In this document: positions 357-20,815 of the stretch, piece after piece
Position numbering within the stretch: position 1 is the stretch's first letter
Layout: each line of letters starts with the position of its first letter
The notes under the pieces: generated by a model
What the model was told of the DNA's origin: nothing
The model's database searches: none
What the model saw: the letters and a program-made list of their open reading frames with translations, nothing else
Program-made: the position numbers and the translations under genes
Source: Eimeria necatrix
Lineage: Eukaryota > Apicomplexa > Conoidasida > Eucoccidiorida > Eimeriidae
Length of the DNA: 20,922 nt
Assembly (NCBI RefSeq): GCF_000499385.1
Contig: NW_013654514.1
Location: 1-20,922 of the forward strand
Direction of reading: 5' to 3'

Positions 357-959
357 TCTACGATCTGCACTCGCCCTCACTACCAACTGCTCACCGGCTT
401 CGCAGAAAAACTAAGAATCTCCACCTTCCGTAACTCATTCACGATCATACGGCGTTCAGCTGGAGACCGCATTGCTGTGGTTCTTTCCAAGTCGAACTGC
501 CTTTCTGATTTCAACAAGGAGACCGCACTGCCAATGCTGAGCTGACGACGTCTTCGAGGTCCTTGGCACAGCGTCGACTAACACATCCGAAGGGAAACTC
601 TCAGCGACACGCAAACGATCACCGCAACGCTCTTGCCCAATGCGAGTCGGTGATATGCTACCCAAGGACTACACCTGTAACAGCATCTACGTATAGCCTG
701 GTACCATTTATTTAGCGCCCACTTTGTCTGTTCTCTTTCCAAACTTTCGTAAGAAAGAGTGGCGAGGCACGCCGTTTCTCCACCGCTTGCCGAGACCACC
801 AACGCTGTTGAAAAACGCAATTTGTAGGAGCATAAAACATCATCAGACCTTCCAGTGAGATACCACAGCAAATGACTGCTCTGCAGTCGCCAACCGAAAC
901 CTTTTCAAACACGTTCACCACTTCCTCGCACCCAGCATCTGCTTCAACCTACTCCCTGC
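357..959 (-). repeat. Unit 0: Gly box (953-955) and X-position box (362-364), wider spacing
   Basis: On the minus strand 948-958 reads CAG-GGA-GTAGG (Gly) and 357-367 reads CAG-ATC-GTAGA (Ile). The second is preceded by GGCGAGTG, very like the GGCGTG that precedes B1 boxes, so it could be either the X or the Y member. In transcript order the Gly box follows the Pro box of unit 1, so the Gly-X-Y register is kept. The intron between them would be 913 nt and the next one 588 nt, both longer than usual. No third box was found before the window edge. Confidence 0.45.
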
Positions 960-3900
960 ACAGTCAGTAGCCTTTACTCGGCAGAACACTGTGGATTAGG
1001 CTTCAAGGCATCGGCTTCAAAGTGTCAGGATGTTGCGACGTGCGTTGCTGGCGCCAATGCGTCGGATTTCTTTTGAACTGCTCAGTATTAAGCTTGTGAA
1101 CCTTGCAAGATAAAGGGCAACTCTTAGCTCACCATTGTGGTTGCAGGGAGGTGCTAAATTTGTTTGTTGTGTTCGTGAATATACGTCCACTAAGAACCCA
1201 GATCCATTGCAATACTTAATCAAATAATTGTAACAATGCACATGGGGTTTCATCATTGGATCTCGTCAAATGAGCTACTTTGCACCCCGAACTGAGACAA
1301 CCCAAATTCAAACTTCACATGATTGTTGCGTGTCTACGTAACCCATAACAAAGCGGCGAATGACCAACAATACAAAACACGTTTTCTTATCAGACATAAT
1401 CACCCTAAATGCGATGCTCTAAACAGTATTGAAACGGCACAATATAATGAAGAAAAATCCGATAGGCGCCAGCATGGCTGGCTCCAGTGCACCAAGAGCC
1501 CCAACAGTCTTTGGAATGGTGAATGCCAAAAAGTAAACGACGGAATGACAAGATTGACGTTTTCCTCATTGAATGCTATTGCAATATACAAACAAAATAG
1601 AGTTCAAACACGCACTGGAGAACGTGTTGCGGATAGATCTACCATTTTGGGTTTATTTTTGTCACTCACGAACGTCACACACATGCAGTATGTCACACTT
1701 TGCGCGAAGTAACGGAGGGTCAATGCTTCGTCATAAAGCAAACATTCACTTGACCAGCACCAGATCATAGAAGCACAAAACTCCGAAACGCAACAGATCT
1801 CGAAAATACCCTTGAATCTATTTTCAATAATCAGCCATGGAAGTCCAACGAAGCCTGATTTGATGTACTGGCTGCGTCACGTGAAAATTTGGAACAGGTC
1901 GTCTCCCAGCGTTTGGAGTCACGAATATTTAAGTAGGTAGAATTGTAAGAAACGTAGAATTGTTCGTACTCAAAAAGGCTTCCTGTCTTATACTCTTCTA
2001 TTTGAAGTAGAATCCAGTTCAACCACGTGGCAGTTCCATATTTAGAAAAGAAAATCCACAAACGCATTCACTTCCACATTTATAGTCAGCGTTTTACAGA
2101 AAGCACGTATTCACTTGGCCCATTTACAGCAATTCTAATCCAACAGCCTGCACACAGCGATCTGCAACAGAGTCCAATGTGCAAAGGCATTGTCAGTGAC
2201 TGTTTTCCAGTCTCACACTACCAAAACATACTACCTGGAGACAAGCGATAGAAGTTCTCTCCTACGGTGTTTACCTTAACACAAAAGATTGTGGCTCACA
2301 GGACACAATCCATTTTGTTTGTCAATGCGTAGCCTCTGCCTCGTCAAGCATAACATTTATTAACACGAAGTATTACAAAGCTGTTTTAAGACGTCGAATC
2401 GGGCAACTGTTCTGACACATTGAATCGGGCAACTGTTCTGACACATTGAAACGGACAACGCCCCATAGCACCCATAGCAGTGGAAAGTGTATTGTCAACT
2501 AGACAGCAGTGTGAACGGCGCGGATTAGCCCTTTTCAAACGCCTCCAGAAACGCTCTACAGATTTTTTTGCGGACAAATGCAGGGCTCCATTATCCAGGC
2601 AACTGCAACTTGTGATATATAAATGCCAGTTGAGCGCTTACTCCCTGAAGGATTGTTGCAAATATCGTCTCTTGCCATGGCAGCAACATCGTACAGGAAT
2701 CGAAACATCGCGAGGCGACTCAGTCTCTGTTCAGTGTCATTCCACTGACTGCCCTCATTGTGTATCAGTACCAACACGCGAGACTTTTACCGTATAGAGC
2801 ACGCATGAACGGGCATTCATTTCGCAACAAAGAAAAAATTCTTCAGCATTGCAAAAACAAAGATCTCTTCGATGCAAAGCGCAAACGCTTCAATCCGTTT
2901 TACAAATTCGTGGGTACCATGATTACTGTCAGTTTGTCAAGAACTTCAACAAAATACAAATTGTTACTGCGAAACTGTGCATAGGTACTTCCTGCTGCAG
3001 GGTTTGCGCTCGCTTTCCGCAATAAACTGGCAGACAACAACGCAACCCCTGTACTACCCACAGACCTTTTAATTTAGGCAGGTTCGATACATCTGGAAAG
3101 CATGCGGCATGGTTGCAGATGGTATTCCGAAGGCTACGTCATAGAATGCTTTGAAAAGAACATAATATGCATTTACATCCCATAAACTCATAGGCCTCCG
3201 TGACGCTATAAGGGACAATTGGCCGAATATAAACAGAACGTCATCCTCCTCACCCTCTGTGCCCCAGTTTCTATATTATATCTACCCTGTGACCAAATAC
3301 AGCCTGCACAGCACGCGTGCGACTCCACACGCCGCTTACTAGCAGATGTGTGTTCGCAATCATGCATTTGCACATGTACGTCGAACACAATGTCTCATCA
3401 TACACCCGTGCTGTTTCGTGAAAATCAAAACCCTTGTCTCATGTCCCGAATTTTGTAACTGTGTAGTCCATTTCAGCTGTCACATACCGACAGTCCCTGC
3501 ACGTCTGCGTACACAACTAATTCATGCCCAATATTCAGCCACGTCGCCGAATCAGCAGTCCTATTCTCGTTGAATGTGCCATTACAAGTGTGTATTGGGC
3601 ACGGCTCATGCAAACGTGCCAGACCATGGTTGTCACGGTTTCAAAGAATTTTCCTATGGCAATTTGTTGCTCCATTTGAAGCCCCTTGGAAGCTTACAGG
3701 CTGCGATAACATAATTTAGAACACTTTTGAGTCATTTTTACACAGAACGCGGCGGATCAGCGGATGCTGTCTACTCTAGCAGCACGTCTAAAATCCATTA
3801 GATTGACGGCTTGGCAGCTAATCTAGTCGCCATTCTTAAAATTTCGGGATGCTTTCCAGTCCTTCTAAAGGCTAACATTTTCCCGGTCTAGACCCAAAAT

Positions 3901-6900
3901 TTTCTACGATGCTCAACAATATTCAATACTGAAGACTATGAAAGCACACCTAAAAGCAGAAAACGTTTTGCATTTCAGCCGTTTATGCAGAGAACGGATC
4001 GAAGCAGACACAGTCTTTGCGAAAAGGCATAGACTCCCGTGCATGCGACAGCAAACAGGCACGCGTAGCCTTCTTTCATTTTTCAAGAAGAATTGAGTAG
4101 CGTGAGCAACGTAGCAACACACCGACGCTTACTCCCTAGAAGCATGCGTTATAATGAGACACTCCTGTTTTATATTTTCAATCCAAGATCGGCTGCTTTC
4201 ACCCAGCAGTGCGCATACATCCAATGAATCGCTGTAAATTGAGATCATTGTGAGACAAACTGCTTATGTCGGCATCTGGTACAATGGGCTACAAGCAGTA
4301 GTGAAAAAAAGCTACCAGCACCTCCGTAATTCCGGTAAGACTGTGCTGCAGAATGTTCTGTTTCCGCATATGCATCACGCGACCGTATCATATCCTGCAT
4401 GATTCAAGCGGCCGAACCACACTCTCGGGAATAGCAACATGGAATCAGGAAGACTCCATATATGTGCGCCTAAATAAAATTTAGTAAGACTGCCTCAAAC
4501 CACAACTTGAAAAAGCCGCAGCGTGCTCAAACGTTTCATGCACCTGGAGGTCAGCCTGATGAGCCATAATAAACAAATGCCCGATTATGAGTATCACGTC
4601 AGTGCTTCAACAATTTACGGCGCAACTAAAAGATTAAAACGCTTTTTCGGACGCGTACCACCTGTATGCCAGACAAAATTGTAAGCATGCCGCACCAGCA
4701 CACGGAAATTGTCCTTCAAATATATGCACAGATATCGGCAACCGGACTACTGGATATAGATACATGCGGCACCGAGCAGTCGCTGGAAGTAACATCAAAG
4801 CAAGCTGTCAAAATCGCCATAGGCCCACTCTCATGAATTTTAATGTGGAGAAAATAATACTCATGTCCCAGGTAAAACAGGAGTATCCCTACGTGCGCAG
4901 CCTAGTCCCGCCTAATCTGCGTTCAAGTCACTGATTGAACAGCCATGCCCTTGCACGATATGCAAACGCATTCCCTTGATTAGGCAGCAAGCAAGAAACT
5001 TCCATGTTTACGAAGTCCGCCGATCGTCTTTCACATCACCACCATAGCTGGCAAAAAAAGCACTTGAAATGCTTACACCCTACAGAAAAGCAAATATGCT
5101 AGTTTACACTCCCATTTGCAGCACAGATGCCGGTGAGACAATGTGAAAGCAATGATTCAACTAAAAGCTCCTCACAGACCCCTCATTGACGTTGTCCCTC
5201 AAAAGAGTTACTTCAATACTCAGTGGTAAGAATTTGTTTTAAAACTCCAACATGAAGGCTTCATATCTGTCGGTATGTTGACAAGAACGCTTCATGGAAT
5301 ATATAAGTCTTTTTGCTCCAACCGTCATCACTGAGATTTATGTCAGTTTTAAAGTCAAGGAAGGCAAGCGCGTGCCGTTTAGTATATGATGAATACCCTG
5401 CTCGATTTGATTAACCACCGAAACATTTTTCACGAGAAGTGTCCATCTGAAGCACGCGTTTGCGAAGAGATTATATTATAGCGAGTGACCGATATTACTG
5501 AAGTCTGGAACGTCGGCGTTTGCCTCAGACGGCAAAATGCAGTGTCAGCAGAGTGCCAGAACGTGCAAAGACTTCGAGTGCTGAAGCACTTTCGCCTTGC
5601 TGTCAGGGAAGCATCCTATTGACTACGACGCGGACGTGTTTCAGCAATCCAAGGTTTTGCACTTTGCGGAACTCCTCCGACACTGGATTCAGCCGATTGA
5701 GGCGAACGCCGACGTTCTGCATTCCAGCAATATTGAAACCTCACCAGTCCTCAATTCATAAAAAGTATACCTCTCAGTGACCGCAGATAGAACGCAGCAC
5801 GGAAGCAAATGAATTGTTTAGAAATTGCCGACAAACGCATCACCTCAATGATTTGGTGCAATAATAAATGTTTAACATACGTTGGCGAGCACGCGACATT
5901 GACAAAAACTAGCTGAACTGTTTTCCATACCATACTTCAACGCATTATGTATTCGCAGACGCGGTCACTGTTATTCAGAACAAAAGGCTGGCTAAAAATA
6001 ATATATGGAATCCTATGCTTTCATGACTTCTTGCACATCCGATTGAGACCGTAGCTACGCACTGGCTGCACCCCAGGCGGAAACATCAGCAACTCTCAGC
6101 AGCCCCTAGAGGCTGGCAACAACTTCTCTTCATATGAAAAAAAAGGCAACTAAATATGCCATGCAAGAAAGCGTCAAGGTGACTGCCACGCACGCTTTCA
6201 AGAAAAGCCACAAAACTGTTCCGAAAACCATATCGTCTCACCGGCATGAAGGTATCAAATATCGAAGACGGATGCTACGTCCATGAAAAAAATAGTGCTA
6301 TGCGAATTTTTTTTAGCTGTTTGCCATATTAATTTGCAATATGCCATATTGATTTGCATAATATTTACCGCAGGCGCTTTTGGAAATCCGAGTGATGTAA
6401 ACTTACGGGCTGCGCAGGAAACTTTTGCAATCGTCGCAGCTTTTCCTTTCCACAGAGCGGCAAAATACCTTGTACTGAGAAAGTGAGCACGATTCGTGTC
6501 CACAACTGATGAGCAAATTCGCAGCAAGCTTACTGGCCGTCTCTCTTCACGATGCCCCCTGAGCCTTAGAGTCGCAACTAATCGAATTATCCCAGGACAC
6601 CTATCGGATCTACGGAATACCAATTTAAAAAAATATCAATCAGTTATACAGCAAATGTACAGTCCGGCAGCGGTTTGTGGTCATCGATCACGCCATTTCG
6701 AAAAAAAGCACAAACCTCGGCCCGCATGCGAACAAGCGCCTCAGTCCCTTGGTAGCCAATAATTGAGAGCCTTCACGGCTTGACGAGAGCTGAATCGCTA
6801 ACAGAAATCTCTTATGAAAGTGAACACACTCCCTAGCAACTCATGGATTTCCAGCTACGCAATTGGATCTGTTACATTTTCTTATTCCAAACTCAAATCA

Positions 6901-9900
6901 AAAGCTGGCATTACGTCAGCAGATCATCTTGGGACATGATGTCGCTGCGGCATACTCCATTGCACGTTGTGCATGTAGGTGTGTGTTCAAAAGGTGCATG
7001 CGTACCAAGGAAGAGGGGTTTCGTGAAAGATGTTACAAGCATCTTCATTACTTCCGCAAGACTGTACTCTAGAACGTTCTACCGCCTCACTGGGCTTCAA
7101 TTGCACCTCTCCAAGAACAATCACAGAACCCGAAAAACGTGTCAAAAGCATAATTTGATAGCTTTTGCTTTAGGGAACAAACGCGTGGTAGGGGATCAGC
7201 GAGACGCATAGACGACGAGGCTGCATGAAAATAGATTGGCTCCAAAGAAGCAACGTACGTGAGCGTTTGAGTGTTCGCACTCAATAAACACCGTCCTGAT
7301 TGCAAACAGCATTTCGGCTTGCCACAACTGTGGACACGCCTTCAACGGTAGGTGACGCCTGTTTCCACATACTGGCTGCACGCCGCGCAGAGATGTTGAA
7401 CCATCTGCGCAGGTCACGAGACCTAGCTACCACTGCTCTGCACGTATGCTTGCAAAGAAAGAGCTCAAGTGTGCCAAACGTTTTAACAAGCAGACAATAA
7501 TCAGCAAAATTGACAAAAGCAGCACAGTTGTGAGTAACAGGTCTCCGCAACTATGAGTGCTGACACTACGCCCGACCAATCGCTATACGAGCCTCTGAAT
7601 CGGCTTTTTATATCCGTGGGCAACTCTCCAGTATGGCCGGGTACTAGGAGGGACGTGCGAAAGGCGCAGCAAAAGGGCTATTAGTTGCTTGCAAGACTCT
7701 AAGGGCCTCTTTCGTAACACAAGTAGTGCTAATAATTAGAGCACTCCCAAAGCCTACAGGCTGTAGCCGCGAAGTATGGGTTGTGCACAAAGCCTTAACC
7801 GAAATGAGGCAAGCCGTTTAATTATGACGATTCGAAGCGAATCTCTTTGTGAGAATCAGCCGGCAGTATGGCTACTGAGCGTGCCTCTTCAACGTAGTGC
7901 TGCGGCCTTTATAGTATCTAACAAGCGCTTGTATGTGAACGCAGAAAGAGCATGAGGCAGTCAGCATTTGTTCTAAATTCGCGAGGGACGAGTGAGTTCC
8001 CAACAGTAAATATTTTACCAGGATCTGCTTTTTGGAGTCCAGTCACCTTATCATAGCTCAGCTCTTCTAATCTTTCAAAATATTCTCCTCACATGTCATT
8101 TAAGCCCAAGAAATTTAAGCAATCAAGGATCGCGAGGTATCGCACTTTGGATGAATATGTACAGAGAGGGAAGGACAATAAAAGGTGACCTCTTGCCGGC
8201 GCTTACTCCCTGAACGTTTATTAATACAGGATTCACTATTTTGAGAATAGGCACGAACTTTTCTTGCCAAAGAAGAATCGGCCAGAGACACTGTACAGCC
8301 ATTGCGAAAAGCCGCGAACACTCCAGGGAGTTTCTGCATACGCTAAAAAGGCTGTCCGTGGTAGCCTTGTGGGTAAGCTTGGTGCACTATACGTTAACCG
8401 TACCGCGCATACGCCAGACTCTAGCCTGCAAAAGGAGACATTTTACGACTCTGAAGAAAGAAAAACGGATTCGATGCTACCCACTCTAAAGCTGGCCTGA
8501 CTAGCCCTGGTGTACAACGTGATTAGTTGCCACGAAAAGTAGCTGTTGGCAAACCGCCTTCTCATCCTCTTCAAGATTCATACAAGAATATTCTTTGGTG
8601 TATATTAACGAGCCTCTGCAATATATGAAAACAGGAAACACAACGCATTATCTTCCGAAAACGCACAACACTTTCGAATGTGCCAAGCATTCAGAGAATC
8701 AATGGCTCAGCAATAAGCAATAAGTCAATATTCCTGCTTTCCTACCACACCTTGTACATTAGAACGAGTGTCTGTCCACATACAGGCTGCACGCCGCATC
8801 TATATGTCGAAATGCCCTTGCAGAATTCAAATGATCAACATTATGTCTCAGCCCGCATGGCGATAGTAGGTTCACCTGTTTGAACTGTACAGGCACTAAA
8901 GAGATTCTGCATTGTGCTGTCATCCAAATTGCCAGGGATCGTGCAGGCCCAATTTAAATCCAAGTTGTCTTATCAGGACGCAAAAGCAGCAGTTGGAGGG
9001 CCAGAACAAAGCACACAGAAATTCCGGGAGGACGATTGAGTCCCTCCCAAGTTACATTTGATCTTTTGAATAAAGGAGCAGTTTCTGGCTTTGCTTGCCA
9101 ACACAGCTACGCACAAAGCACAAAGCAAGAAACCGCACTGCAGCAGGGCGACCCTCGCTCGCAAGTTACTCAAACCTTACTTCGCATCTCAAGCGTAACT
9201 CCTGCTGCCTTCATTTCAAGACGTACATACTGGAATAAAGTAATTATGCAACTTTGGTGTGTTTATTCTCGACAATGCAGCAGAGTTCATTTGAGAGCTA
9301 CAATTAATTGCCTAGTCAATTGCTTCCTAGAATTATTTGATACTATCATGTAAGGCTTATGAAATGTTAACGATGTTTCAATCGCGACCATTAAATCTTC
9401 AGCACACCAAATATAATCACTCAAAAACGATCAAACCAAGCACAGCGTAAATATGGAAGTGAATATCATATGCATCACAACCATTCGTGCCTGCTATTGG
9501 TCAAGTATGATTGCGAACTGCCGTCTAACAGTTTATTTAGTGCAATACTCGTAGTGGCAGCCAAGGATAAGAAGCCTTTATTGCTCGGCATTAATTGAAG
9601 AGCATGAGCAAACAAGCCACACACAGAGCCGCGTACTCCCTCAATAATTCGTGCTCTGATGTGTTGTAAGTGCACGTTTTACTTCGCTCTTAAGCTCCAA
9701 ACTCCCCTGGAAATTTTCTGAAAAGGAGCAGAGCATTACACAACGTCGCATTCTTTACCTTACAGGGAGCTATGGTAGCGCCCTTATCGTCTAGTTAATA
9801 TGCGTACGCTCAATGCAACGTATTATTTGCAGAGGCGTGTCACTGCATTGCAGCAAACCTGCTAACTGCAGCATAGGCTGATGGATAACACATTCACGCA

Positions 9901-12900: not shown

Positions 12901-15900
12901 ATCAAGAAGAGGTGCTTAACGAAAATTCGCGCGATTGTGTCTCGACACTCTGCGCAGGATCTAGAAAAATAGGCTGAATACTTAGTCACATACATCCTGC
13001 ACGCAACACAGACGTATTAGCATTCTACCCAGCTCAGGTGTTTTCGCGACATTTTCTGTGCACGAATGTCGGATGTGGAGGCACTTCCTCTGGCCGCAAC
13101 CTTCGCCGAGCAATTTACAGAACTGGCAGCCTGGGCCAATTGACTAGCAGCAAACGGATAGCGTACATATTTGACGAACTGAAAATCAGGACTGAAGCAC
13201 TAGCAAGATATGCGATTGCGATAAGGCGGCAAAATTAAAACGCACGTTTGTTCGGGTTCTCAGGAAAAGCTGCAGAATGTTGGGCTTGCAACAATGACAG
13301 TCGATGACTTAAATGGCACTTAATCCTTCTTTTACGCGTAGCTTTTTGCACCTCGTCTCACTGGAACACTTACAGGCTGTACGAAACAATTTCGCCTGTT
13401 TGTAGCTGACTTTCTCCACAACACGGCAAGGCGGTTTAAGCACATAAGGCGAAATATTTGCTTGAGCCATTGATGAAGAGCATCGCAGTTGCTCTAGCCC
13501 TCCTTTCAAGTGTTGTTGGATTATTTATGAAGGTTAATATCTCCTAAAGTGTTCCACCAAACATTTTAAACATCTCCCAGTAGTTCCCCACACAGTATTT
13601 AATTTAGAAAGCACGTCAAGCAGCAGCACGAAACCTTTAGGCTTCTTGGCATGTGTGCAAAGCAAAGAGATAACAAGGATACGGCTTTTATACCTGTAAA
13701 ATACGTTGCATGTTATATGGCGCTCTAACATTTTCCCTAGCGAGATTTTCAAGCTTCCGTGATTTTACTTAAGCAAAACTTTCCCACAGGTCCACTGCCC
13801 GCAAGTGCCTACTCCCTGATTTTCGTTTTCAAGATTTGCATTTCTTAAACCAGACCGGGAAGTGCATTTGTACAGCTATTGCGAAAATAAGCACACAGCG
13901 ATGGATTGCTTCTTCCAGACTAACTGGCCACCTCTGAGAGCTAGTGGTAAAGGTTGGTGTGCAAGCTTGTTTCCACACTTGTGCAGATGTCGGTTCTTGC
14001 CCTGTAACACGAGGTCCTGCACAACCTCAAGGACGAGCAATGATTTGGCGCATACTGAGCCTGGTGAGGGCTGGGTAAATAAACACGCAAGTACTTAAGT
14101 ACATGCACATGCCACACACCCACAGACCTCCGTGATGGTATTCACAACAAACATTTGATCACGGACAACACATCAGGTCCTTTATACATCGTATTGCACA
14201 TTGGGTATTAGGCGGATTATGCATGCGCATACAGGCTGCACGCCAAAAAAGAAATGTCAACGCATCTTCGTGGCATATGCGCGGCCACTTCTCTGCTCCG
14301 ACACTGATATGCCAAAGGCATCAACCAGGAACTTTTCATGCCGACAGTCCAATAAGGCGTAATAAACATAACACTGCCAAAGTGATGCCCTTAATCTAGA
14401 TGCGACATTATAGGCAGCATGCCTGGTGCAACGCTCCAACAAATATGAATTAAAAGCCAATTCAATGTGGCTGCACTGTCACGCAGCTGCGTTAAGAGAA
14501 AATGGCTAACTCATGAGGCTTCGTAGCGGGGAAAAGCTCAAGAAATCACGCGAACATTTTGCTGAGACCAGCAAAAGCCTAAATTGTTCTTGGCATTTCA
14601 AGACGTCTTGCCATGAAGAGGTTTTAAAACACACTGGCTGGTAAAAAGCAATTCTTGTTATTCTTTAGTGTTGCCTGGCAGATGAGACCAGAGGCATGGA
14701 TGCTTACAATGCAAATCATTAATAAATTTACAAAGCATCCTTTGAGTGCTATTGGAGCTTTCAGAAGCACTGAATTTTTCACCGTCGTAGGCAGGGAAGG
14801 TGGTACAATCTTCCAGTACTTAGCTCACGCTTGTGCGCGCATCAAAACGTCAAATGGACGATTTCCTCGGCCACCTGGTGGCGTTAGCCAGCAGCCTTAC
14901 TGCAACATGATATCCGCGCTTATTTCCAAATGTGCCGGTGTGGATAATCATTTGCCCAGTCTAATGTGGCAGCCAACATCATTTCGACGTTTTCATAGGC
15001 TCACTGAATATCCATTGTTTTCAGAGCAAAGCGTTTTACTTACCCATGGCACGAAGCCTGGGAATCTTACTATGAGATATTTTAAGAAGAGCCCAAGGAA
15101 TTTGGCCTATCATGGTTATGTTCGGAAAATTGTTGAAGCTGAAGCTCTCACTTTTTCCTTTGGTGCCGACGTGCTGATCTGGTAAATCTGATACTGCTCC
15201 AAACTTAACACCCACAGGGCTTACTCCCTGAATATATATTGTTTTCAAAGAAAAAGCATCTTGCCTGTTCATAGCACGAAGCCTGCGAATGTCAACAAGA
15301 AATGCTTTGAAAAAAAGCACAAAGAATTTGACTTTTCGTGGCGATGTTCAAAATTTTGCCGAAACCGGCGCTTCCAATTTTTCTTTGAATGCCGACGCGC
15401 CGATCTGTCAAATATGACACAACTCAAATAAGAAGATCGCCTTGGAAAGGGAATAATGCTTTGGAGCAACACGCAGACCCGCAATACAAGCTGCCCCCAC
15501 CGTCCTTCTAAACAGCACGCGAGCAGCGAGGCAACCAACAATACGTAAAGGGCGGCAACAGCCCGTCTATCACACCCATAAAACAATATTGCATGCTTAC
15601 TTCTGTTGTACCCGCATTAGGTGACTAAATGTAAACGTGGCCTAGCAAGAAGCCTCATCTGACAGTTATTGTCGATTTGCGCGAACAAGAAGATCAGAAA
15701 GACCTATACACGATATTGGTAAGGCTGCATCAAGTGCCATCATCACGAGCATACATGGCGTTGTGCATTCCAAAACAAAAGCTCGACCACAAACAACATG
15801 CCATCGCCTTTATCCGTTGTCCCGCTCCGCGCCTTTCCCGTGCTCATACGATTTTGATTAACCTACTCTCTTTAAAGCACGTAAATCTTTCAGCAAGTAG

Positions 15901-18900
15901 CACCGAAAAATGTGTTTTCACAGTCATATTCCCGCACGCACAAGAACAGCGTGCACCCTAAAGTGAGCCCAGCACTGCAATAAGCAGAATGTTGAGCCGA
16001 CAGTCAAGTAAATCAAGGCGAATGTCACATGTTTTATCCGTAGCCTACATGTCTCACAAGAGCAAGAGATGACGCGTTTCATTCCTCAAGCAAAACATCC
16101 TGGCGATTCTGAATGCAAAATTCATCCCACCAATTCACATGCGGCCAGCCACCTCAGCATACATCTCTTCTCTCAATTTCTTAATACAGCTCCATGTTGG
16201 ATTTCTGCAAGTCCTCGTGTTGAGTCTCCTTTGCAATCGCAAACATTTCTCAGTTGAGCGCTATACCAGGGCTTACAGGCTGTAGAAAATCACCGACCTT
16301 TCCTTTTTCATGTATCATCGAAGATATTTGTGCCCAACACATGGGCAACGCATTTGGAGCACAACAGGTCACAGACACATTTACTAACCATATTTCTTTG
16401 AGTTACATTCTAAAATTCAAAAACCCATGGTTCCATTAAGTGTTTAGGAAACAGCGAGCTACGAGCATCTGCTCCATATCATATAAATTAGAGAACAGAA
16501 TAACAAAACAAGAAAAATTTATCATTCAAATGATTGCGCAAGCTACTGAAGCTCAAAAAAATTGAGCATAGCTACGAAGTCGTGGCTCAGGTGATTTAGC
16601 GTCCGAAGCATTTGGCTATTTGGGGACCGAGATGCTCTATCGCTTCGGGCGAATTATCCTGTGTAAGATTACCAGGCAACTATACTTACTCCCTGAGCAG
16701 TTGCTCTTTTCAAAGCTATCGCTTGCAATTTGCTGATAATGCGTACCGAAAAAGCCCTAGTGTAAAATCATTGTTTAACAATGCAGGAATCACACGAAGT
16801 TTTCTTTGCTGCTTAGCAACCTCGTCCTGGCACTTGCTCTGGAACGAGAAGCGCGATATTTCAAGGAGATGCCGCACTTAAAGGACAGCACCTCAAGTTG
16901 AAATACGCTACAAATACCATCCAGATGAATATAGCTTAGATGTGCGCGTGCTAGAGCTTGCATGACTCACGTCTGGCTACCCGAACCACTGATAATTGTA
17001 ACGTTTTTCACTGGTATCACCTCCGCCTTCACGTTGCTGTACTATAGTGAATACGTGACGCAAGGAGATACTGGTAAGACGACGTCTATTGAAGGTGACC
17101 GAGACCTCGCAGCAAACATAAACACGCAATGCACCCTCAGATTCTCCTGATGCTATCCAAAACAAGTGCTCGATAATGAACAGATCAATTTCACTGCAGC
17201 TTGCACATTACGCCATGGCTTGTTTCGACATACTGGCTGCGCTCCACACAAACGTGGTAAACACGACTTAACACAACGAGCGTGCTCGCGGTGAACGCGC
17301 TGCCCATGTGAGAGCTAAAGAAACATTCAAGTAGACCGCGAGCATATTCGCTACCTGACTTAGCACAATCTAACATGTTTGGAGCCTGAAGACGGCATAA
17401 AATGCTGATGTAGGACACACCAAATCTGCATTTGAGCAACTAAATAACAGGACTGCCGTCGTTGGATTTTTCGGTACAGTTTCGCATTAGCTACTGCAAA
17501 GAAAGCGGCGCCCAAAAGTGCAATCGCTGTTTCCAATGTGACTTTGCCAGTTCCTGCACCACATACGACCTTAAATTATTCAATTTCGGACTTTTGCACT
17601 ATCTGCGCAATGCAGCACTGAGGCAGATGGCGACAGTGTGATTATCCCCTAACAGAAACATAATGGTTGATATTCACGTAATAATGTCGGTACAATTAAT
17701 CTCGTCATGCTACAGGAAAAGCAATAGAAAATTCGTGTTGAATTGCATATGCCGGATGTCGCTGGTGTACTTCAAATACACGTAAGGCAAGCCCGCGGAA
17801 GGAAACGCAAGGAGTATTTCTTTTGAAAAGACGAGAATGAGGTTGGACGGAAGAAACCAAATAGTGTCAGAAAACGCTACATGCTAATTAAAGTACTATG
17901 TAGGCCTGTCTGGACAATTGGCTCACCTCGTGTGTCACAGTTTTCTCTCTTCGACAGCATGATATGTTTTAAGTTCCTCTACGCTCCGGAGCGGTCCCTT
18001 GCTATTTCACAAGCCCATCAGTACTGAACACAGACACAAACGGCCGTCTGCAATAGCGTCCTGACGTATATTACTACATTATGCACAAATATCTGATAGC
18101 TTTAAATCTCTCGCTGCCCAGGGCGGTATCTTTTCACTCTGCAAGTCTATCATTACTGAAAGCAAAAACACATGGCAGCATGGAAAAGCGCTTCGATGTA
18201 GACGTGTGATAGGGTGTCAGACACACATTTTGAGTGAAACCAATATAATAAGTTTGTGAGTCCAACCTGCGCACTACTGAGATAGAACAATATGTCTACA
18301 AGAGCTTGTTTCTTCGCAAAGAGACTACGTACATAATTGACTATTATAATATTTCTCATAAACCAATCATCCCCATACATCAAAGCTATGCATCATGAAA
18401 GACGCTGAGAGCGTCACATAAGCATCGTTGTATTTTGTACTCCAGCAAGCAAAGTCCAATATGAACAAGAGCAAGTAAACATTGTGCTCGATTTTCCGCT
18501 CGATTTTTCTGGATAATCTACTGCCTTCACAGCATTTCGGTGCTGTTAAACCACGGAAAAAACAAGTCTCTTGAGTGTAGTATTCAAAAGAATATCCTCA
18601 AGACCAAATCTGTAAAAGAGCAGAAGCATGGTACTCTTAGGAAATTGCCATAATTTCCATAATCTGGCGGCCATATGTCATTGCCAGGAAGAGCATTTGC
18701 ATGGCCTCATATGCTTTATAAACACATTTTGACTTGAATACAGGCATCACGAGTTCAATAGGCTCACGACTACAAACGCATGAAATGGAACCCATGTGAT
18801 TGAGCTATAGGTGACACAAGAAGTTTGCCAACCCTTCTAATATTAATGGCAACTAATGACTCATCCGCATTGCAGCTTCATTGGCCTTGAACACTAAATC

Positions 18901-20799
18901 CTGAGAACGTTTAAGGAAATTAATAGGACTGCCAAGAAACATTTGTTTTGATGACCAGATTCTGAGTATAGACGTGCACTTAACAGAATTTGTGTGAATA
19001 GCGTGCTTTCGCGCAGATACGCAGCGGGCATCACTAGGATTTTGTGACAAAACGACTTAGAATTGTTCCTTTTCCTCGCAGATGATATGTCCTGTTTTCG
19101 CAACTCCATGGCCAATACGAGGGCGCTTTCTGAAGCTAGCGCGCACTCCGTGAAGCATCGATCGTTTATTTATTGAGACACGATACGTGTGAATCACAAG
19201 GCCGCATTACGCCTTTTCAGAATGGCGATGTGAAACGGTTAATAGTAAGCACAGCTCCTCATATTTCACAAGTACAACTAAAACAAAACGTCAAATGATG
19301 CTCGTCTGATCAATGTGCACCTGTGTATGTACACCACGTCGTCATAAGAATAAGAGTTTTCACCGTATTTCGCTACGCATGCTGCTGTTGCTGAGAGCCT
19401 TCTAAAGACGTTAAGACATGACTCAAGACGCTTCCAACTGGCTAATCCCCAACAACAGGAACCGAATAGCCTCGTTAACTAGCTGAGCAAGACACACATT
19501 CCGCTATTCTTCCAACAGCAACACATACTCTTCGCAACTATAATGATTTTTCTGAACCGCTACACTGAAAGGCCCGAGAAAATAATTAATACTGCATTGC
19601 AACGGTCGAGAAAAAACACACGCTGTTGCCTATACGCCATCGAAGCTTCACAATGAGTTGGAGAACACACCAGGCGTCACTGCACGCATTGTAGCCAAAC
19701 GTTTTCCGCTGAAACGTGCAACTCGCGTGTCAAGACGAGCGCAGCAACAAACCTGATGGCAACACGTCAATCGTTCACATGACAGGTCCACGAGTGGCGC
19801 GAGCGAAGAACAGCTGGCGTGTGTGGCAGGCCACAGCATGCCCAAAACTGGCAAGGCAGCTTTTGATTCAAGTGACCGCAGGAAATGAAGCTTCCACCCA
19901 ACCGGCAACACCGGTAGAGATGCTTTGTTTTCGACGTGACACCTCCTCCCTGCCAAGCCGTACGTGCACTTGAAAAACCAACAGCTTACTGGTGTAATCG
20001 AAACGCATGGGCACGCACAACAGCCACAACAGCCGCCCATAACTATTCAATATGGGTTCAACAGACTGCTCCTCAGCGCCTCAACATTCGCTTTGCAGCG
20101 TCTTCATTAAGCATGCCGGGTGCTTGGCTCCTAGGCAACGCAATTTGCTCGTCTACGCTCCTGTACGGTACTGCATATTGACGGCACCGGAGCTTTGCTT
20201 GTCAGCAGCTGTGCGCAAAACAGACCCTTCATTCCAGCGCTGCTTCGCATGTGAATGGTCGCCTTTGGTGGTGCGTGATGAAGTCCTTATCTTGGGCGTC
20301 GCATCCCTCACAGTAGTCCCTCAGTTGTGAGCCGGCATTTCACATTTGATGCACGTACTTTCTGCAAATGCAACGTTTGCCCCTCATCCCTGTGGTTTTA
20401 AGCGCAAAACAACAACTGACACTGCATTGTTAACGAAGCGCTTTGCTGGCTAGTCAAGACCAAACCCACAGATTGTTGCTTCCACGCATTTGAGGCTTCA
20501 CAATGAGGTGGAGAACACAACAGGCGTCATTGCACTCATTGCAGCCAGACGGTTTTCGATGAAGCATGCAAATCGCGTGTTCAAACGAGCGCAGACACTC
20601 ACCTGATGGCAATACCTCAATCGTTCACATGACAGGTCCACATATGGCGCGAGCGAAGAACAGCGAGCGTGTGCGGCAGGCCACAGTGGGCCCATAACTG
20701 ACAAGGCAGCTTTTGATTCAAGTGACCACAGGAAAGAAGGCTTCCACCCAACCGACCACACCGGTAGAGACGCTTTGTTTTCGACGTGACACCTACTCC
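362..20799 (-). CDS. Putative collagen-like (Gly-X-Y) gene built from 3-nt single-codon exons; internal part, no start or stop
   Basis: About 40 boxes of the form YAG-NNN-GTRNG lie on the minus strand, in a repeating order A, B2, B1 along the transcript. If YAG ends an intron and GT starts the next, each box holds a 3-nt exon. Box A codons are Gly at every unit where a box was found; B2 codons are mainly Pro, with Val, Lys, Glu and Ile; B1 codons are Pro, Asp, Ala, Val and Lys. This is collagen's Gly-X-Y pattern, and phase-0 exons starting with a whole Gly codon are normal in known fibrillar collagen genes. Those exons are usually 45, 54 or 108 nt, so one codon per exon would be extreme. Introns would be about 270-660 nt, a few up to 985. 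The box array is seen; splicing and product are inferred. It could instead be an old satellite with a conserved binding motif. No domain outside the triplets is visible. Confidence 0.5.
960..1863. other. Long box-free interval, read as an intron
   Basis: No convincing box occurs here. The regular spacing predicts an A box near 1270-1290; the closest sequences there read TGC-AAA-GTAGC (1274-1284) and TTC-GGG-GTGCA (1281-1291) on the minus strand. The latter keeps a Gly codon and GT but lacks the acceptor AG, so I do not call it. Open frames at 1323-1712 (+) and 1017-1256 (-) overlap nothing recognisable. Confidence 0.4.
1864..2648 (-). repeat. Unit 1 of the 1.4-kb three-box repeat (Gly-Val-Pro)
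   Basis: Minus-strand boxes: A at 2637-2647 CAG-GGA-GTAAG (Gly, exon 2642-2644); B2 at 2227-2237 CAG-GTA-GTATG (Val, 2232-2234); B1 at 1864-1874 CAG-CCA-GTACA (Pro, 1869-1871). Introns would be 407 and 360 nt. The B2 box was found only after the spacing of other units predicted it near 2210-2250, which is a useful test of the model. The A acceptor is preceded by AATCCTTCAG, a fair pyrimidine-rich 3' splice end. The 26-bp tandem repeat lies inside the A-B2 intron. Confidence 0.65.
2396..2459. repeat. 26-bp tandem repeat, two perfect copies plus a partial third
   Basis: The 26-nt unit, starting GAATCGGGCAACTG and ending GACACATT, occurs at 2396-2421 and again without change at 2422-2447. A third, diverged start follows at 2448-2459. 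Two perfect copies imply a recent slippage or duplication event, unlike the strongly diverged 1.4-kb units around it. It falls in the presumed intron of unit 1. Confidence 0.95.
3296..4139 (-). repeat. Unit 2 of the three-box repeat (Gly-Pro-Ala)
   Basis: Minus-strand boxes: A at 4128-4138 TAG-GGA-GTAAG (Gly, 4133-4135); B2 at 3693-3703 CAG-CCT-GTAAG (Pro, 3698-3700); B1 at 3296-3306 CAG-GCT-GTATT (Ala, 3301-3303). Introns would be 432 and 394 nt. The A acceptor uses TAG in place of CAG, a change that acceptors tolerate, and it follows ATAACGCATGCTTC, which contains a branch-point-like ATAAC and pyrimidines. B2 also has a good upstream tract (ATGTTATCG). All three boxes have a full GT donor. 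Confidence 0.7.
4140..4653. other. Intron-like interval between units 2 and 3
   Basis: No gene is seen. One box relic may exist at 4387-4397, where the minus strand reads CAG-GAT-ATGAT: an acceptor and an Asp codon as in other B1 boxes, but AT where the donor GT should be. Unit 3 lacks one box, so this could be a decayed or AT-type site, or chance. A CATAC-ATC sequence at 4214-4221 resembles a B1 donor but has no AG. Confidence 0.35.
4654..5084 (-). repeat. Unit 3 of the repeat, incomplete: Gly (or X) box and Val box
   Basis: Minus-strand boxes: 5072-5082 TAG-GGT-GTAAG (Gly, 5077-5079) and 4654-4664 CAG-GTG-GTACG (Val, 4659-4661). By spacing they fit B2 and B1, and the expected A box near 5490 is missing. 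By codon, GGT could itself be the Gly of this triplet. As found, the exons give Gly-Val then Gly of unit 2, a one-residue Gly-X-Gly imperfection of the kind known in non-fibrillar collagens. The intron upstream of 5077 would be 983 nt. B1 was found at the position predicted from unit 2 and keeps the downstream match to CTG--TGCC/CACGCC seen in other B1 boxes. Confidence 0.5.
5085..6057. other. Long box-free interval; expected A box of unit 3 absent
   Basis: Spacing predicts a Gly box near 5470-5520. The minus strand there has TTCAGTAAT (about 5494-5502), which looks like an A box with the GGA triplet deleted, but it holds no exon. A second weak candidate at 5392-5400 has only one base between CAG and GTATT. 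Open frames at 5520-5780 (+) and 5751-5933 (-) are not recognisable proteins. Confidence 0.4.
6058..6836 (-). repeat. Unit 4 of the three-box repeat (Gly-Pro-Pro)
   Basis: Minus-strand boxes: A at 6825-6835 TAG-GGA-GTGTG (Gly, 6830-6832); B2 at 6402-6412 CAG-CCC-GTAAG (Pro, 6407-6409); B1 at 6058-6068 CAG-CCA-GTGCG (Pro, 6063-6065). Introns would be 420 and 341 nt. B2 continues as GTAAGT, the full donor consensus, and uses CCC where most units have CCT, a synonymous change. The A and B1 donors carry G at position +3, which donors allow. A 20-bp tandem repeat lies between B1 and B2. Confidence 0.65.
6322..6361. repeat. 20-bp tandem duplication
   Basis: The sequence TGCCATATTAATTTGCAATA at 6322-6341 is followed directly by a copy at 6342-6361 that matches at 18 of 20 positions. 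It is AT-rich and lies in the presumed B2-B1 intron of unit 4. It appears to be local slippage with no coding role. Confidence 0.9.
7368..8213 (-). repeat. Unit 5 of the three-box repeat (Gly-Pro-Pro)
   Basis: Minus-strand boxes: A at 8202-8212 CAG-GGA-GTAAG (Gly, 8207-8209); B2 at 7753-7763 CAG-CCT-GTAGG (Pro, 7758-7760); B1 at 7368-7378 CAG-CCA-GTATG (Pro, 7373-7375). Introns would be 446 and 382 nt. B1 shows the full extended B1 context: GGCGTG before CAG and TGG after GTATG. Upstream of A on the minus strand is TATTAATAAACGTTCAG, with a branch-point-like TTAAT. About 80-100 nt to the right, the plus-strand sequence CAGCCATTGCGAAAA is shared with unit 9, showing common descent of the flanking intron. 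Confidence 0.75.
8779..9643 (-). repeat. Unit 6 of the three-box repeat (Gly-?-Pro; X box weak)
   Basis: Minus-strand boxes: A at 9632-9642 GAG-GGA-GTACG (Gly, 9637-9639) and B1 at 8779-8789 CAG-CCT-GTATG (Pro, 8784-8786) with full GGCGTG context. The A acceptor is GAG, which is rarely used. Two X-position candidates occur in the right place, both with a donor but no AG: 9176-9186 TGC-GAA-GTAAG (Glu) and 9226-9236 ATT-CCA-GTATG (Pro). I prefer the first by spacing (B1 to B2 397, B2 to A 456), but neither would be a standard acceptor. Confidence 0.5.
10278..11115 (-). repeat. Unit 7 of the three-box repeat (Gly-Pro-Asp)
   Basis: Minus-strand boxes: A at 11104-11114 CAG-GGA-GTACG (Gly, 11109-11111); B2 at 10670-10680 CAG-CCT-GTGTG (Pro, 10675-10677); B1 at 10278-10288 CAG-GAT-GTATG (Asp, 10283-10285). 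Introns would be 431 and 389 nt. Acceptor contexts are good: AATTCCCAG for A and AATTTCTTGCAG for B2. Upstream of the B1 acceptor the minus strand has no AG for about 70 nt, the AG-free zone expected before a real 3' splice site. This makes a longer exon ending at the same donor hard to build here. Confidence 0.75.
10902..10929. repeat. 14-bp tandem repeat, two copies
   Basis: ACAGCTGTTTGTGT at 10902-10915 is followed directly by a copy at 10916-10929 with one mismatch. It lies in the presumed A-B2 intron of unit 7 and inside a 158-codon + strand open frame (10511-10987) that I do not call as a gene. Confidence 0.85.
11749..12453 (-). repeat. Unit 8 of the three-box repeat (Gly-Pro-Lys, or Gly-Pro-Asp)
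   Basis: Minus-strand boxes: A at 12443-12453 TAG-GGG-GTGAG (Gly, 12448-12450); B2 at 12021-12031 TAG-CCT-GTAAG (Pro, 12026-12028); B1 at 11749-11759 CAG-AAA-GTATG (Lys, 11754-11756). An alternative B1 at 11645-11655 reads AAG-GAT-GTCAG (Asp) and has better spacing but weaker splice ends. Box A is informative: against the consensus it has CAG to TAG, GGA to GGG and GTAAG to GTGAG, all changes that keep splicing and Gly, and it reads TTTTAG before and GTGAGT after. B2 follows CTCTCTTATAG, a strong pyrimidine-rich acceptor. Confidence 0.65.
12989..13819 (-). repeat. Unit 9 of the three-box repeat (Gly-Pro-Asp)
   Basis: Minus-strand boxes: A at 13808-13818 CAG-GGA-GTAGG (Gly, 13813-13815); B2 at 13369-13379 CAG-CCT-GTAAG (Pro, 13374-13376); B1 at 12989-12999 CAG-GAT-GTATG (Asp, 12994-12996). 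Introns would be 436 and 377 nt. B2 reads TTGTTTCGTACAG before and GTAAGTG after, a textbook acceptor and donor. B1 is preceded by CTAATACGTCTGTGTTGCG, a CTAAT branch-point-like motif followed by pyrimidines. The reading frame through the A box is closed just upstream by a TGA, which argues against a longer exon ending there in that frame. Confidence 0.78.
14228..15231 (-). repeat. Unit 10 of the three-box repeat (Gly-Pro-Pro), stretched by a duplication
   Basis: Minus-strand boxes: A at 15220-15230 CAG-GGA-GTAAG (Gly, 15225-15227); B2 at 14630-14640 CAG-CCA-GTGTG (Pro, 14635-14637); B1 at 14228-14238 CAG-CCT-GTATG (Pro, 14233-14235). The A-B2 intron is 587 nt because a segment around A has been duplicated with an offset of about 225 bp. 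Removing it gives about 365 nt, close to other units. B1 is preceded on the minus strand by GACATTTCTTTTTTGGCGTG, a strong polypyrimidine tract immediately before the CAG. Confidence 0.75.
14996..15421. repeat. Direct duplication around the unit 10 A box, about 225-bp offset; one box copy lost
   Basis: Sequence at about 14996-15200 matches about 15218-15421 with small gaps. Shared blocks include ATTGTTTTC (15014 and 15238), GCACGAAGCCTG (15049 and 15274) and GCCGACG-GC-GATCTG (15165 and 15391). By eye, identity is roughly two thirds. The right copy keeps the intact A box CAG-GGA-GTAAG. In the left copy the same place (about 14998-15010) reads TTCAGTGAGCC on the minus strand, so the GGA triplet is gone. 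A 176-codon + strand open frame (14655-15185) overlaps the left copy and is probably chance. Confidence 0.85.
15862..16696 (-). repeat. Unit 11 of the three-box repeat (Gly-Pro-?; Y box uncertain, perhaps Arg)
   Basis: Minus-strand boxes: A at 16685-16695 CAG-GGA-GTAAG (Gly, 16690-16692), continuing as GTAAGT; B2 at 16272-16282 CAG-CCT-GTAAG (Pro, 16277-16279) after GGTGATTTTCTACAG, a strong acceptor. The B1 position is unclear. The best candidate is 15862-15872 AAG-AGA-GTAGG (Arg, 15867-15869), with an AAG acceptor and spacing of 410 to B2. Another at 15845-15855 has a GTATG donor but no AG. Gly-Pro-Arg would be a common collagen triplet, but I would not rely on it. Confidence 0.6.
17229..17605 (-). 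repeat. Unit 12 of the repeat, Gly box not found (?-Ile/Val-Pro)
   Basis: Minus-strand boxes: B1 at 17229-17239 CAG-CCA-GTATG (Pro, 17234-17236) and B2 at 17595-17605 CAG-ATA-GTGCA (Ile, 17600-17602). A competing B2 at 17562-17572 reads AAG-GTC-GTATG (Val) and is followed by TGG as in B1 boxes. The expected A box should lie near 17965-18050. The closest sequence, on the minus strand at 17990-18000, is AAG-GGA-CCGCT: Gly codon and AG kept, donor GT changed. So either the Gly exon is lost here or I have missed it. Confidence 0.45.
17606..18373. other. Box-free interval between units 12 and 13
   Basis: I see no gene and no intact box. The possible decayed Gly box of unit 12 lies at 17990-18000. 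A donor-like CGAGGTGAGCC occurs on the minus strand near 17930-17942 but lacks a matching acceptor three bases upstream. A 76-codon minus open frame at 18153-18383 is not recognisable. Confidence 0.4.
18374..19153 (-). repeat. Unit 13 of the repeat, degraded (Gly-Pro-Asp, acceptor AG missing in all boxes)
   Basis: Three box-like sequences sit at the expected spacing: A at 19142-19152 CAC-GGA-GTGCG (Gly, 19147-19149), B2 at 18737-18747 ATG-CCT-GTATT (Pro, 18742-18744), B1 at 18374-18384 TTT-GAT-GTATG (Asp, 18379-18381). Codons and GT donors are kept, and A is preceded by GCTT as in other units, but none has the acceptor AG. If splicing is real, this unit is probably dead or uses other sites. 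It could also be a false match guided by spacing, so confidence is low. Confidence 0.35.
19154..19639. other. Interval between unit 13 and the right-end duplication
   Basis: No gene is recognised. One donor-like sequence occurs at 19524-19534 on the minus strand (CGA-AGA-GTATG), 418 bases left of the duplicated A box at 19942, which is the usual B2-A spacing. It lacks the acceptor AG and may be the relic of a B2 box copied or shifted with the duplication. Confidence 0.35.
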
Positions 20800-20815
20800 C
20801 TGCCAAACCATGCAT
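19640..20815. repeat. Direct repeat pair, 850-bp offset, about 86% identical, carrying a duplicated A box
   Basis: Segment 19640-19965 matches 20490-20815 with a constant 850-base offset and no indel that I could find. I counted about 45 mismatches over about 315 bases. Each copy carries an A box: the right copy reads CAG-GGA-GTAGG (20792-20802), the left CAG-GGA-GGAGG (19942-19952), so the left has lost the donor GT. Both copies hold an open minus-strand frame of more than 100 codons, but about 20% of its amino acids differ for 14% base change, which looks neutral and not protein-constrained. This is the youngest large duplication in the window. Confidence 0.9.
19985..20803 (-). repeat. Unit 14 of the three-box repeat (Gly-Lys-Pro)
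   Basis: Minus-strand boxes: A at 20792-20802 CAG-GGA-GTAGG (Gly, 20797-20799); B2 at 20354-20364 CAG-AAA-GTACG (Lys, 20359-20361); B1 at 19985-19995 ACA-CCA-GTAAG (Pro, 19990-19992). Introns would be 435 and 366 nt, typical of the series. B1 looks like CAG-CCA-GTAAG with the G of the acceptor deleted, so its splicing is doubtful. The left-hand A box copy at 19942 lies only 43 bases further along and has lost its donor. Confidence 0.55.

What the first reader, a model, noticed from the sequence alone, without database searches (positions are those of the whole stretch)
1864..20803. Ordered array of minus-strand boxes that each look like two splice sites exactly three bases apart
Scanning by eye for the strict pattern YAG-NNN-GTAWG, I found 19 minus-strand copies, all belonging to one ordered series: 2227, 2637, 3693, 4128, 5072, 6402, 7368, 8202, 8779, 10278, 11749, 12021, 12989, 13369, 14228, 15220, 16272, 16685, 17229 (left ends). 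From base composition about 1.5 are expected, and the plus strand gave two (27-37, 12537-12547). The gap between AG and GT is always three. Three-nt microexons are known in animals and plants, but a long run of them is not something I know of. This could be a gene spliced codon by codon.
Basis: partly seen in the sequence, partly recalled or inferred. Interest (0 to 1): 0.97.

Follow-up and report, generated by a model that had tools for sequence, protein, structure and literature searches.

The report
Collagen-like gene split codon by codon
In the chicken gut parasite Eimeria necatrix, a row of about 35 splice-site-like pairs, each enclosing exactly one codon, reads out the glycine-every-third-residue pattern of collagen and keeps it in two sister copies, so the gene is likely spliced together one amino acid at a time, a design that ordinary gene-finding would be expected to miss.

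Summary
The 19 boxes are real, strand-specific and far beyond chance (200 shuffles: mean 1.2, maximum 5). They belong to a longer array. Aligning the window with two diverged contigs of the same genome (79% and 67% identical) gives, under a fixed rule and after removing one stop-codon box, 35 conserved boxes with glycine at every third (9 of 11 steps; 0 of 100,000 permutations). Glycine codon positions 1-2 vary at 0 of 24 columns while intron columns vary at 42%, and the wobble varies at 3 of 12. The window reads VP-GPR-GPP-GPD-GPK-GPD-GYP-GPP-GPP-GV(-)-GPA-GVP-G. The best reading is a collagen-like gene whose exons are each one codon, joined by stepwise splicing. The array runs off both contig ends. 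The organism is Eimeria necatrix. A second locus, not collagen-like, has a long first exon with an apparent signal peptide and then 104 one-codon boxes against 3 on the other strand. Genome-wide, AG-N3-GT exceeds AG-N4-GT 385 to 60 in one motif. No RNA was available, so splicing itself is inferred. The closest known kind is the schistosome micro-exon gene.

The parts
948..17572 (-). Array of 35 one-codon boxes (YAG|codon|GTRNG and near forms) in Gly-X-Y order; minus strand reads from high to low coordinates. In each box with left end L the codon is L+5..L+7.
17562..17572 (-). X box, GTC Val (AAG acceptor here; CAG in both paralogues)
17229..17239 (-). Y box, CCA Pro
16685..16695 (-). G box, GGA Gly
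16272..16282 (-). X box, CCT Pro
15862..15872 (-). Y box, AGA Arg (AAG acceptor in all three contigs, so weaker and outside the fixed rule; CGA in both others)
15220..15230 (-). G box, GGA Gly
14630..14640 (-). X box, CCA Pro
14228..14238 (-). Y box, CCT Pro
13808..13818 (-). G box, GGA Gly (GGG and GGC in paralogues)
13369..13379 (-). X box, CCT Pro
12989..12999 (-). Y box, GAT Asp
12443..12453 (-). G box, GGG Gly
12021..12031 (-). X box, CCT Pro
11749..11759 (-). Y box, AAA Lys (AGA in C920; gap in the C924 row)
11104..11114 (-). G box, GGA Gly
10670..10680 (-). X box, CCT Pro
10278..10288 (-). Y box, GAT Asp
9632..9642 (-). G box, GGA Gly (acceptor GAG here, CAG in both paralogues)
9222..9232 (-). 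X box, TAT Tyr
8779..8789 (-). Y box, CCT Pro
8202..8212 (-). G box, GGA Gly
7753..7763 (-). X box, CCT Pro
7368..7378 (-). Y box, CCA Pro
6825..6835 (-). G box, GGA Gly
6402..6412 (-). X box, CCC Pro
6058..6068 (-). Y box, CCA Pro
5072..5082 (-). G box, GGT Gly
4654..4664 (-). X box, GTG Val; no convincing Y box follows before 4128
4128..4138 (-). G box, GGA Gly
3693..3703 (-). X box, CCT Pro
3296..3306 (-). Y box, GCT Ala (a rival Y box AGG Arg lies at 3249-3259 and is the one aligned in all three contigs)
2637..2647 (-). G box, GGA Gly
2227..2237 (-). X box, GTA Val
1864..1874 (-). Y box, CCA Pro (donor GTACA here)
948..958 (-). G box, GGA Gly
20792..20802 (-). Further upstream G box, GGA (CAG|GGA|GTAGG); order between here and 17572 not resolved
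20354..20364 (-). Possible upstream Y box, AAA Lys (CAG|AAA|GTACG)

Best explanation
The minus strand of this Eimeria necatrix contig carries a run of one-codon boxes in Gly-X-Y order, which is most likely a collagen-like gene whose exons are each a single codon and would be joined one after another by the spliceosome. Shown: each box is an acceptor-like YAG (in a few boxes AAG or GAG), exactly three bases and a donor-like GTRNG (one box GTACA); the boxes follow the order Gly-X-Y and repeat with a unit of about 1.4 kb; glycine is conserved at codon positions 1-2 and free at the wobble among three diverged copies. Inferred: introns of about 270-980 nt are removed stepwise. Both splice sites of a 3-nt exon probably cannot be occupied at once, so one flanking intron would go first, fusing the codon to its neighbour, and the next site pair would then be used, as in recursive splicing but with one codon kept at each stop. 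All junctions would be phase 0, so duplicating one 1.4-kb unit adds one Gly-X-Y triplet and skipping a box drops one residue without a frameshift. The product would be a triple-helical protein, its location and stage unknown. The same box architecture occurs at a second, non-collagen locus of the genome and probably at many more.
For: Count and strand. Gap of exactly three: window 19 at k=3, 0-8 at other k; 11 contigs 152 sense against 10 antisense, 2-22 at other k. Order: 36 conserved boxes in the alignment of three contigs, Gly at every third, 10 of 11 steps; with the one stop-codon box removed, 35 boxes and 9 of 11 steps; 0 of 100,000 permutations either way. Two other paralogue groups, stop boxes removed: 4 of 6 steps (755 of 100,000) and 3 of 4 (1,676 of 100,000). 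Codon-level selection: window group Gly positions 1-2 vary at 0 of 24 columns, wobble 3 of 12, introns 6115 of 14602 (P 2e-6 at the intron rate); all groups 1 of 48 against 10099 of 32108. No stop among 269 triplets in strong boxes, 2.8-4.7% expected. Second locus C200: 104 sense against 3 antisense boxes at k=3, 2-17 sense at other k from 0 to 69, behind a first exon that ends in phase 0 at GTAAGT. Genome-wide TGCAG-N3-GTRCGT 385 (reversed control 34), N4 60 (27), N6 103 (34). The actin gene lies in two long open frames (312 and 163 codons) and five actin-family loci hold only 0-2 boxes per strand. Literal window peptide resembles Pfam Collagen, E 2.9e-4.
Against: No RNA or peptide evidence was available. 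The literal peptide scores 21 bits, below Pfam's curated cut-off of 27.2; only a version with a filler residue I added reached 28. One Y box (between 4654 and 4128) was not found, one Y is ambiguous (3296 or 3249), the acceptor is GAG at 9632 and AAG at 15862 and 17562, so this copy may be partly decayed. Two TAA boxes satisfy the conserved-box rule (16376; 1745 of C1064) and must be chance or unused; each stood in for a missing box and so completed one step of three (removed). Under the laxer donor rule GTRNG, 5 of 298 sense boxes of the 11 contigs are stops. In group 3 one Gly box reads Ala and Glu in two copies, and in group 2 one X box reads Gly in one copy. The 10 further contigs were picked for their box motifs. 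No start, stop or terminal exon was found in the window. A search with the C200 first exon plus decoded residues found no relative.
Confidence: 0.84

Rival explanations
1. The boxes are recursive-splicing stops (ratchet points) inside giant introns of other genes: they help remove long introns in steps and the three bases are not part of the final protein.
For: Acceptor and donor nearly touch, as at Drosophila ratchet points (PMC8605326, passages incl. the abstract); introns are long and the sites are conserved.
Against: Ratchet points have no bases between the sites; here k=0 is absent from the window and k=3 dominates. The three bases carry codon-level selection, Gly-X-Y order and no stops in strong boxes.
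Confidence: 0.05
2. A dead or dying gene family: the one-codon exons were once real, but the window copy and perhaps most copies are pseudogenes that are no longer spliced into a product.
For: One Y box missing, a GAG acceptor at 9632, Gly lost in two of four copies at one box of group 3, many short contigs with related arrays.
Against: Gly positions 1-2 unchanged at 24 of 24 columns among copies whose introns vary at 42%, so constraint lasted through most of the divergence.
Confidence: 0.08
3. A satellite-like DNA repeat whose 11-15 bp boxes are protein-binding or other DNA sites, with no splicing.
For: The 1.4-kb unit recurs; flanks of boxes of one type are a little more alike (0.29-0.37) than of different types (0.25).
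Against: A binding site would not explain wobble-only change at Gly or faster change at X and Y codons than in flanks in two groups. Nor would it explain the same three-base gap at C200, where apart from local duplicates the boxes share little but the splice consensus and the 104 boxes enclose 42 different codons.
Confidence: 0.03

Closest known systems
Schistosome micro-exon genes (MEGs), PMC4671649 (search listing and passages seen)
   Same: Coding part built mainly from tiny exons, most with length divisible by three, with a long 5' exon that holds most or all of the signal peptide; hard for gene finders. Locus C200 has the same start.
   Different: MEG micro-exons are below 36 bp, and 26 of 33 in the new genes of that paper are symmetrical; here every box is exactly 3 nt, phase 0, tens to over a hundred in a row. 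No kinship is claimed.
Collagen triple-helix proteins (Pfam PF01391)
   Same: Gly at every third residue, Pro-rich, with Pro, Asp, Lys, Arg at Y.
   Different: Animal fibrillar collagen exons are typically 54 nt or multiples, coding whole Gly-X-Y triplets (recalled); here one triplet spans three exons and about 1.4 kb. Literal window peptide is below the curated cut-off.
Single ultra-short exons: 1-nt exon of Arabidopsis APC11, PMC4674806 (abstract and introduction seen); plant microexons, PMC8831610 (start of abstract and passages seen)
   Same: Show that the spliceosome can include exons of 1-3 nt.
   Different: In the text seen these are single microexons, or two adjacent ones of 5 and 12 nt; here they form the whole coding array.
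Drosophila recursive splicing at ratchet points, PMC8605326 (passages incl. the abstract seen)
   Same: Juxtaposed acceptor and donor used in successive steps along a long intron.
   Different: No bases between the sites there; here one codon, under protein-level selection.

Membership tests
Micro-exon gene (as defined for schistosomes) | Coding portion mostly composed of exons under 36 bp | tested here: met
   By sequence only: 35 one-codon boxes in order in the window, 104 in C200. Use as exons not shown by RNA.
Micro-exon gene (as defined for schistosomes) | Micro-exon lengths divisible by three | tested here: met
   Only k=3 stands out; k=1, 2, 4, 5 at background.
Micro-exon gene (as defined for schistosomes) | Long 5' exon with the signal peptide | tested here: inconclusive
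   C200: open frame from an ATG at L038 7565 to 7888 (108 codons), hydrophobic N terminus (signal peptide read by eye, no predictor run), donor GTAAGT in phase 0. Not visible in the window, whose array runs off both ends.
Micro-exon gene (as defined for schistosomes) | Long 3' exon | not tested
   No end of the array was seen in the window or at the C200 contig end.
Collagen-like protein (PF01391) | Uninterrupted Gly at every third residue | tested here: inconclusive
   Eight Gly-X-Y triplets in a row (16685 to 6058, counting the AAG-acceptor Arg box), then one triplet without a found Y, then two more.
Collagen-like protein (PF01391) | Pfam Collagen score above the curated cut-off | tested here: not met
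   Literal peptides of the window and its two paralogues 21, 14.4 and 22 bits against 27.2; 20-residue C1064 peptide no match. The peptide is a fragment of about 35 residues of an open-ended array.
Collagen-like protein (PF01391) | Forms a triple helix | not testable with these tools
   -
Recursive-splicing ratchet point | No bases between acceptor and donor | tested here: not met
   Window k=0 count 0, k=3 count 19.
Spliceosomal exon | Joined in mature RNA | not testable with these tools
   No RNA reads held; a PacBio data set of E. necatrix exists (PMC8474931, start of abstract and passages).

The most novel reading that the evidence does not exclude
Eimeria builds whole proteins one amino acid at a time at the RNA level: thousands of exactly one-codon, phase-0 exons, in collagen-like and unrelated genes alike, are stitched in series by the spliceosome. 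This would make every residue a separately skippable cassette, and lets a protein grow or change by duplicating a single-codon unit. The whole class is invisible to gene finders and read aligners.
Probability: 0.6. Interest if true: 0.98.

Novelty: new variant of a known kind. Interest (0 to 1): 0.95.

Why it matters
Exons of 1-6 nt are known as isolated curiosities, and splicing is usually thought to need exons long enough for both sites to be recognised. Genes whose coding arrays are made of one-codon exons would be the extreme limit of the split gene. They would test how the spliceosome keeps order over tens to hundreds of consecutive 3-nt exons. They would also mean that part of the coccidian proteome is likely missing from annotations, because gene finders and aligners rarely handle 3-nt exons. 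In Eimeria, a poultry pathogen, such hidden proteins may include surface or structural proteins.

Tried and rejected
Rfam and tRNA scans of the window: nothing. ORFs of the window of 80 aa or more: 27, the longest 176 aa, none spanning the array; they were not searched for relatives. Long conserved exons between paralogues: none stood out, the best-conserved 24-column stretches are scattered and include several boxes. 6-nt exons: N6 count 103 with control 34, a mild excess, not followed. Pfam with decoded C200 residues: nothing. Protein search with the C200 first exon plus decoded residues: none at E 1 or better among 4,490 candidates; first exon alone: one protein of 126 residues, 100% identical over the query, on a 3,156-base contig, no name. 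Gap of 32 in the window (8 hits): 4 share donors of true boxes, judged accidental. I first guessed Cyclospora from genome size; a search with an actin-related protein showed Eimeria necatrix. 5.8S rRNA in the own genome: no match. (a heavier alignment) was stopped for memory and replaced. A test for faster change at X and Y codons was positive in two groups and negative in the window's group, so it is not part of the main claim.
Full report
What was checked. The window is contig C873 of a 44.0-Mb genome of 1148 contigs. An actin-related reading frame of that genome (contig C367, 94,859 bases) is 100% identical to a protein filed as Eimeria necatrix on a contig of the same length, so the organism is the chicken coccidian E. 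necatrix. Shuffled windows give 1.2 on average and never more than 5 in 200.

The gap of three is real. In the window k=3 gives 19 and every other k from 0 to 60 gives 0-8. Over the window and ten further contigs k=3 gives 152 sense and 10 antisense matches and every other k 2-22 sense. Those ten contigs were chosen because they carry several of the box motifs, so their k=3 excess is partly selected; the window and the C200 stretch below are cleaner tests. Three exact motifs occur genome-wide above their reversed controls: YAGGGAGTAAG 40+41 against 5+6, YAGCCTGTAAG 27+35 against 4+4, GTGCAGNNNGTATGTG 9+15 against 0+0. Many of the hits cluster on short contigs; ten were fetched, three of them not to their last bases.

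The order is Gly-X-Y. I aligned C873 with C924 (79% identical) and C920 (67%) and listed every aligned place where at least two of three contigs have YAG-NNN-GTRNG. This gives 36 boxes. The enclosed codon is Gly at 12 of them, in all three contigs each time (36 of 36 cells), and no other box is Gly in any copy. 10 of 11 steps between successive Gly boxes are exactly three boxes. One of these ten is completed by a TAA box (16376), which sits where the rule misses the Arg box at 15862 because its acceptor is AAG in all three contigs. Without the TAA box 9 of 11 steps are three. None of 100,000 random orders does as well in either case. The other exception is the Y box between 4654 and 4128, which I could not find. 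Two more paralogue groups behave alike: C1064, C213, C948 have Gly in 21 of 21 cells of their seven Gly boxes and 5 of 6 steps of three, or 4 of 6 without a TAA box (755 of 100,000 permutations); one of their X boxes is Gly in one copy. C224, C337, C1070, C260 have Gly in 18 of 20 cells of five boxes and 3 of 4 steps (1,676 of 100,000).

Reading the window literally, with the Arg box and choosing 3296 over the rival 3249, gives VPGPRGPPGPDGPKGPDGYPGPPGPPGVGPAGVPG. Median intron lengths are 420 (Gly to X), 382 (X to Y) and 639 (Y to Gly). Flanks of boxes of the same type are slightly more alike than those of different types (0.29-0.37 against 0.25), which suggests old tandem duplication of a three-exon unit (repeat families).

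Codon-level selection. In the window group, Gly codon positions 1-2 vary at 0 of 24 columns, the wobble at 3 of 12, intron columns at 6115 of 14602 (boxes with gaps and all-stop boxes were dropped before this count, 2 of 36 here). Over the three groups it is 1 of 48 against 10099 of 32108. Synonymous change is visible directly: GGA, GGG and GGC at 13808; GGG, GGG and GGA at 12443; GGA, GGT and GGA at 8202; AGA and CGA at 15862. X and Y codons vary at about the rate of their flanks in the window group (24 of 66 against 423 of 1075, p 0.7) and faster in the other two (21 of 42 against 136 of 707, p 1.5e-5; 14 of 30 against 111 of 504, p 0.004). That would fit diversifying change at the exposed positions, but the sequences are few and related, so I treat it as a lead. 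Among 269 triplets in strong boxes (152 with GTAWG in 11 contigs, 104 with GTRNG in C200, 13 with GTRNG in C148) none is a stop, where 2.8-4.7% are expected. With the laxer GTRNG rule the 11 contigs give 5 stops of 298 sense boxes. A dynamic-programming list of C200 has 2 stops of 130, both in weak boxes.

The same architecture elsewhere. At C200:234001-258453, chosen for three YAGGGAGTAAG hits, YAG-NNN-GTRNG occurs 104 times on one strand and 3 times on the other; other gaps from 0 to 69 give 2-17. The boxes enclose 42 different codons, and 71 of 103 spacings are 100-225 bases. Upstream lies an open frame starting MARYALGAMLFTCLAAAAAG, which I read by eye as a signal peptide, with a further hydrophobic stretch, 108 codons long and ending in phase 0 at TCC|GTAAGT. 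This is the layout of a gene with a normal first exon and then one-codon exons. Eight 3-kb loci around YAGGGAGTAAG hits were scored; two lie inside that C200 stretch and two on one other contig. Seven show a strand bias (11 to 0, 5 to 2, 6 to 1, 6 to 0, 5 to 1, 14 to 0, 9 to 0) and one, L003, has 1 to 0. Five actin-family loci show 0-2 per strand. C148 has 13 against 1 at k=3. Genome-wide, TGCAG-N3-GTRCGT occurs 385 times (control 34), N4 60 (27), N6 103 (34). In the fetched C200 stretch this narrow motif marks 8 of the 104 boxes, so a crude extrapolation is some thousands of one-codon exons; that number is inference.

How it likely works. The splice consensus of the boxes (YAG; GTRNG with GTGCG, GTACG, GTAAG) looks like that of usual spliceosomal introns. 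Because the two sites of a 3-nt exon lie within one spliceosomal footprint, the flanking introns are probably removed one after the other: one codon is fused to the neighbouring exon and the next pair is then used. This resembles recursive splicing, except that a codon stays behind. All of this is inferred; no RNA was available to me.

Against what is known. Searches of the open PMC library for 3-nt, 3-bp, three-nucleotide, single-codon, codon-sized or one-codon exons found no paper, and none held microexons, Apicomplexa and Eimeria together. Three wider searches showed nothing of the kind in the rows listed (2 of 2, 12 of 174 and 8 of 317 papers). Subscription papers and preprints were not searched. 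A 1-nt exon in Arabidopsis is published, with 3 nt given as the smallest alternative and 6 nt as the smallest constitutive exon known until then (PMC4674806, abstract). Schistosome micro-exon genes are the nearest kind (PMC4671649, passages). The E. tenella reference reports 6.34 exons per gene of 350 nt on average and introns of 298 nt (PMC8515493, passage); I did not look into that annotation itself. I call it a new variant of a known kind: micro-exon genes taken to the limit of one codon per exon, in a different phylum. I do not file it as Pfam Collagen, because the literal peptide is below the curated cut-off; it works like a Gly-X-Y coding tract.

Noticed in passing
window 19612-19911 and 20462-20761: 300-nt direct repeat, 83% identical, 850 bases apart; the Gly box at 20792 lies just beyond one copy and its counterpart near 19942 lacks the donor GT.
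   Followed up: partly
window 5492-5605 and 5620-5733: Inverted repeat with 114-nt arms, 74% complementary, 14 nt apart, inside the long intron before the Gly box at 5072.
   Followed up: no
window 2381-2459: Three copies of a 26-bp tandem repeat.
   Followed up: no
L038 (C200:225001-234000), minus strand, about C200 225371-229544: Reading frames that look like pieces of a Ty3/gypsy-type retrotransposon (recognised by eye) upstream of the C200 first exon.
   Followed up: no
L038 about 8161-8920 and start of L029: Tandem units of roughly 150 bp whose box copies are partly intact (GCA, GAG, GGA, GAT) and partly without a usable donor, right after the first exon: one-codon exons seem to multiply by local tandem duplication.
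   Followed up: partly
C200 246340, 246537, 246739, 246944: Four boxes about 200 bases apart with look-alike flanks but four different codons (CAC, GAT, GGA, GTC); flank identity not measured.
   Followed up: no
groups C1064/C213/C948 and C224/C337/C1070/C260: X and Y codon columns are two to two and a half times as variable as their flanks while Gly mostly stays, for example GAT, GAA, GAA, CCA with identical immediate neighbours.
   Followed up: partly
G000, pattern TGCAG-N6-GTRCGT: Mild genome-wide excess of a 6-nt gap (103 against a reversed control of 34), perhaps CAG-repeat background or some two-codon exons.
   Followed up: no
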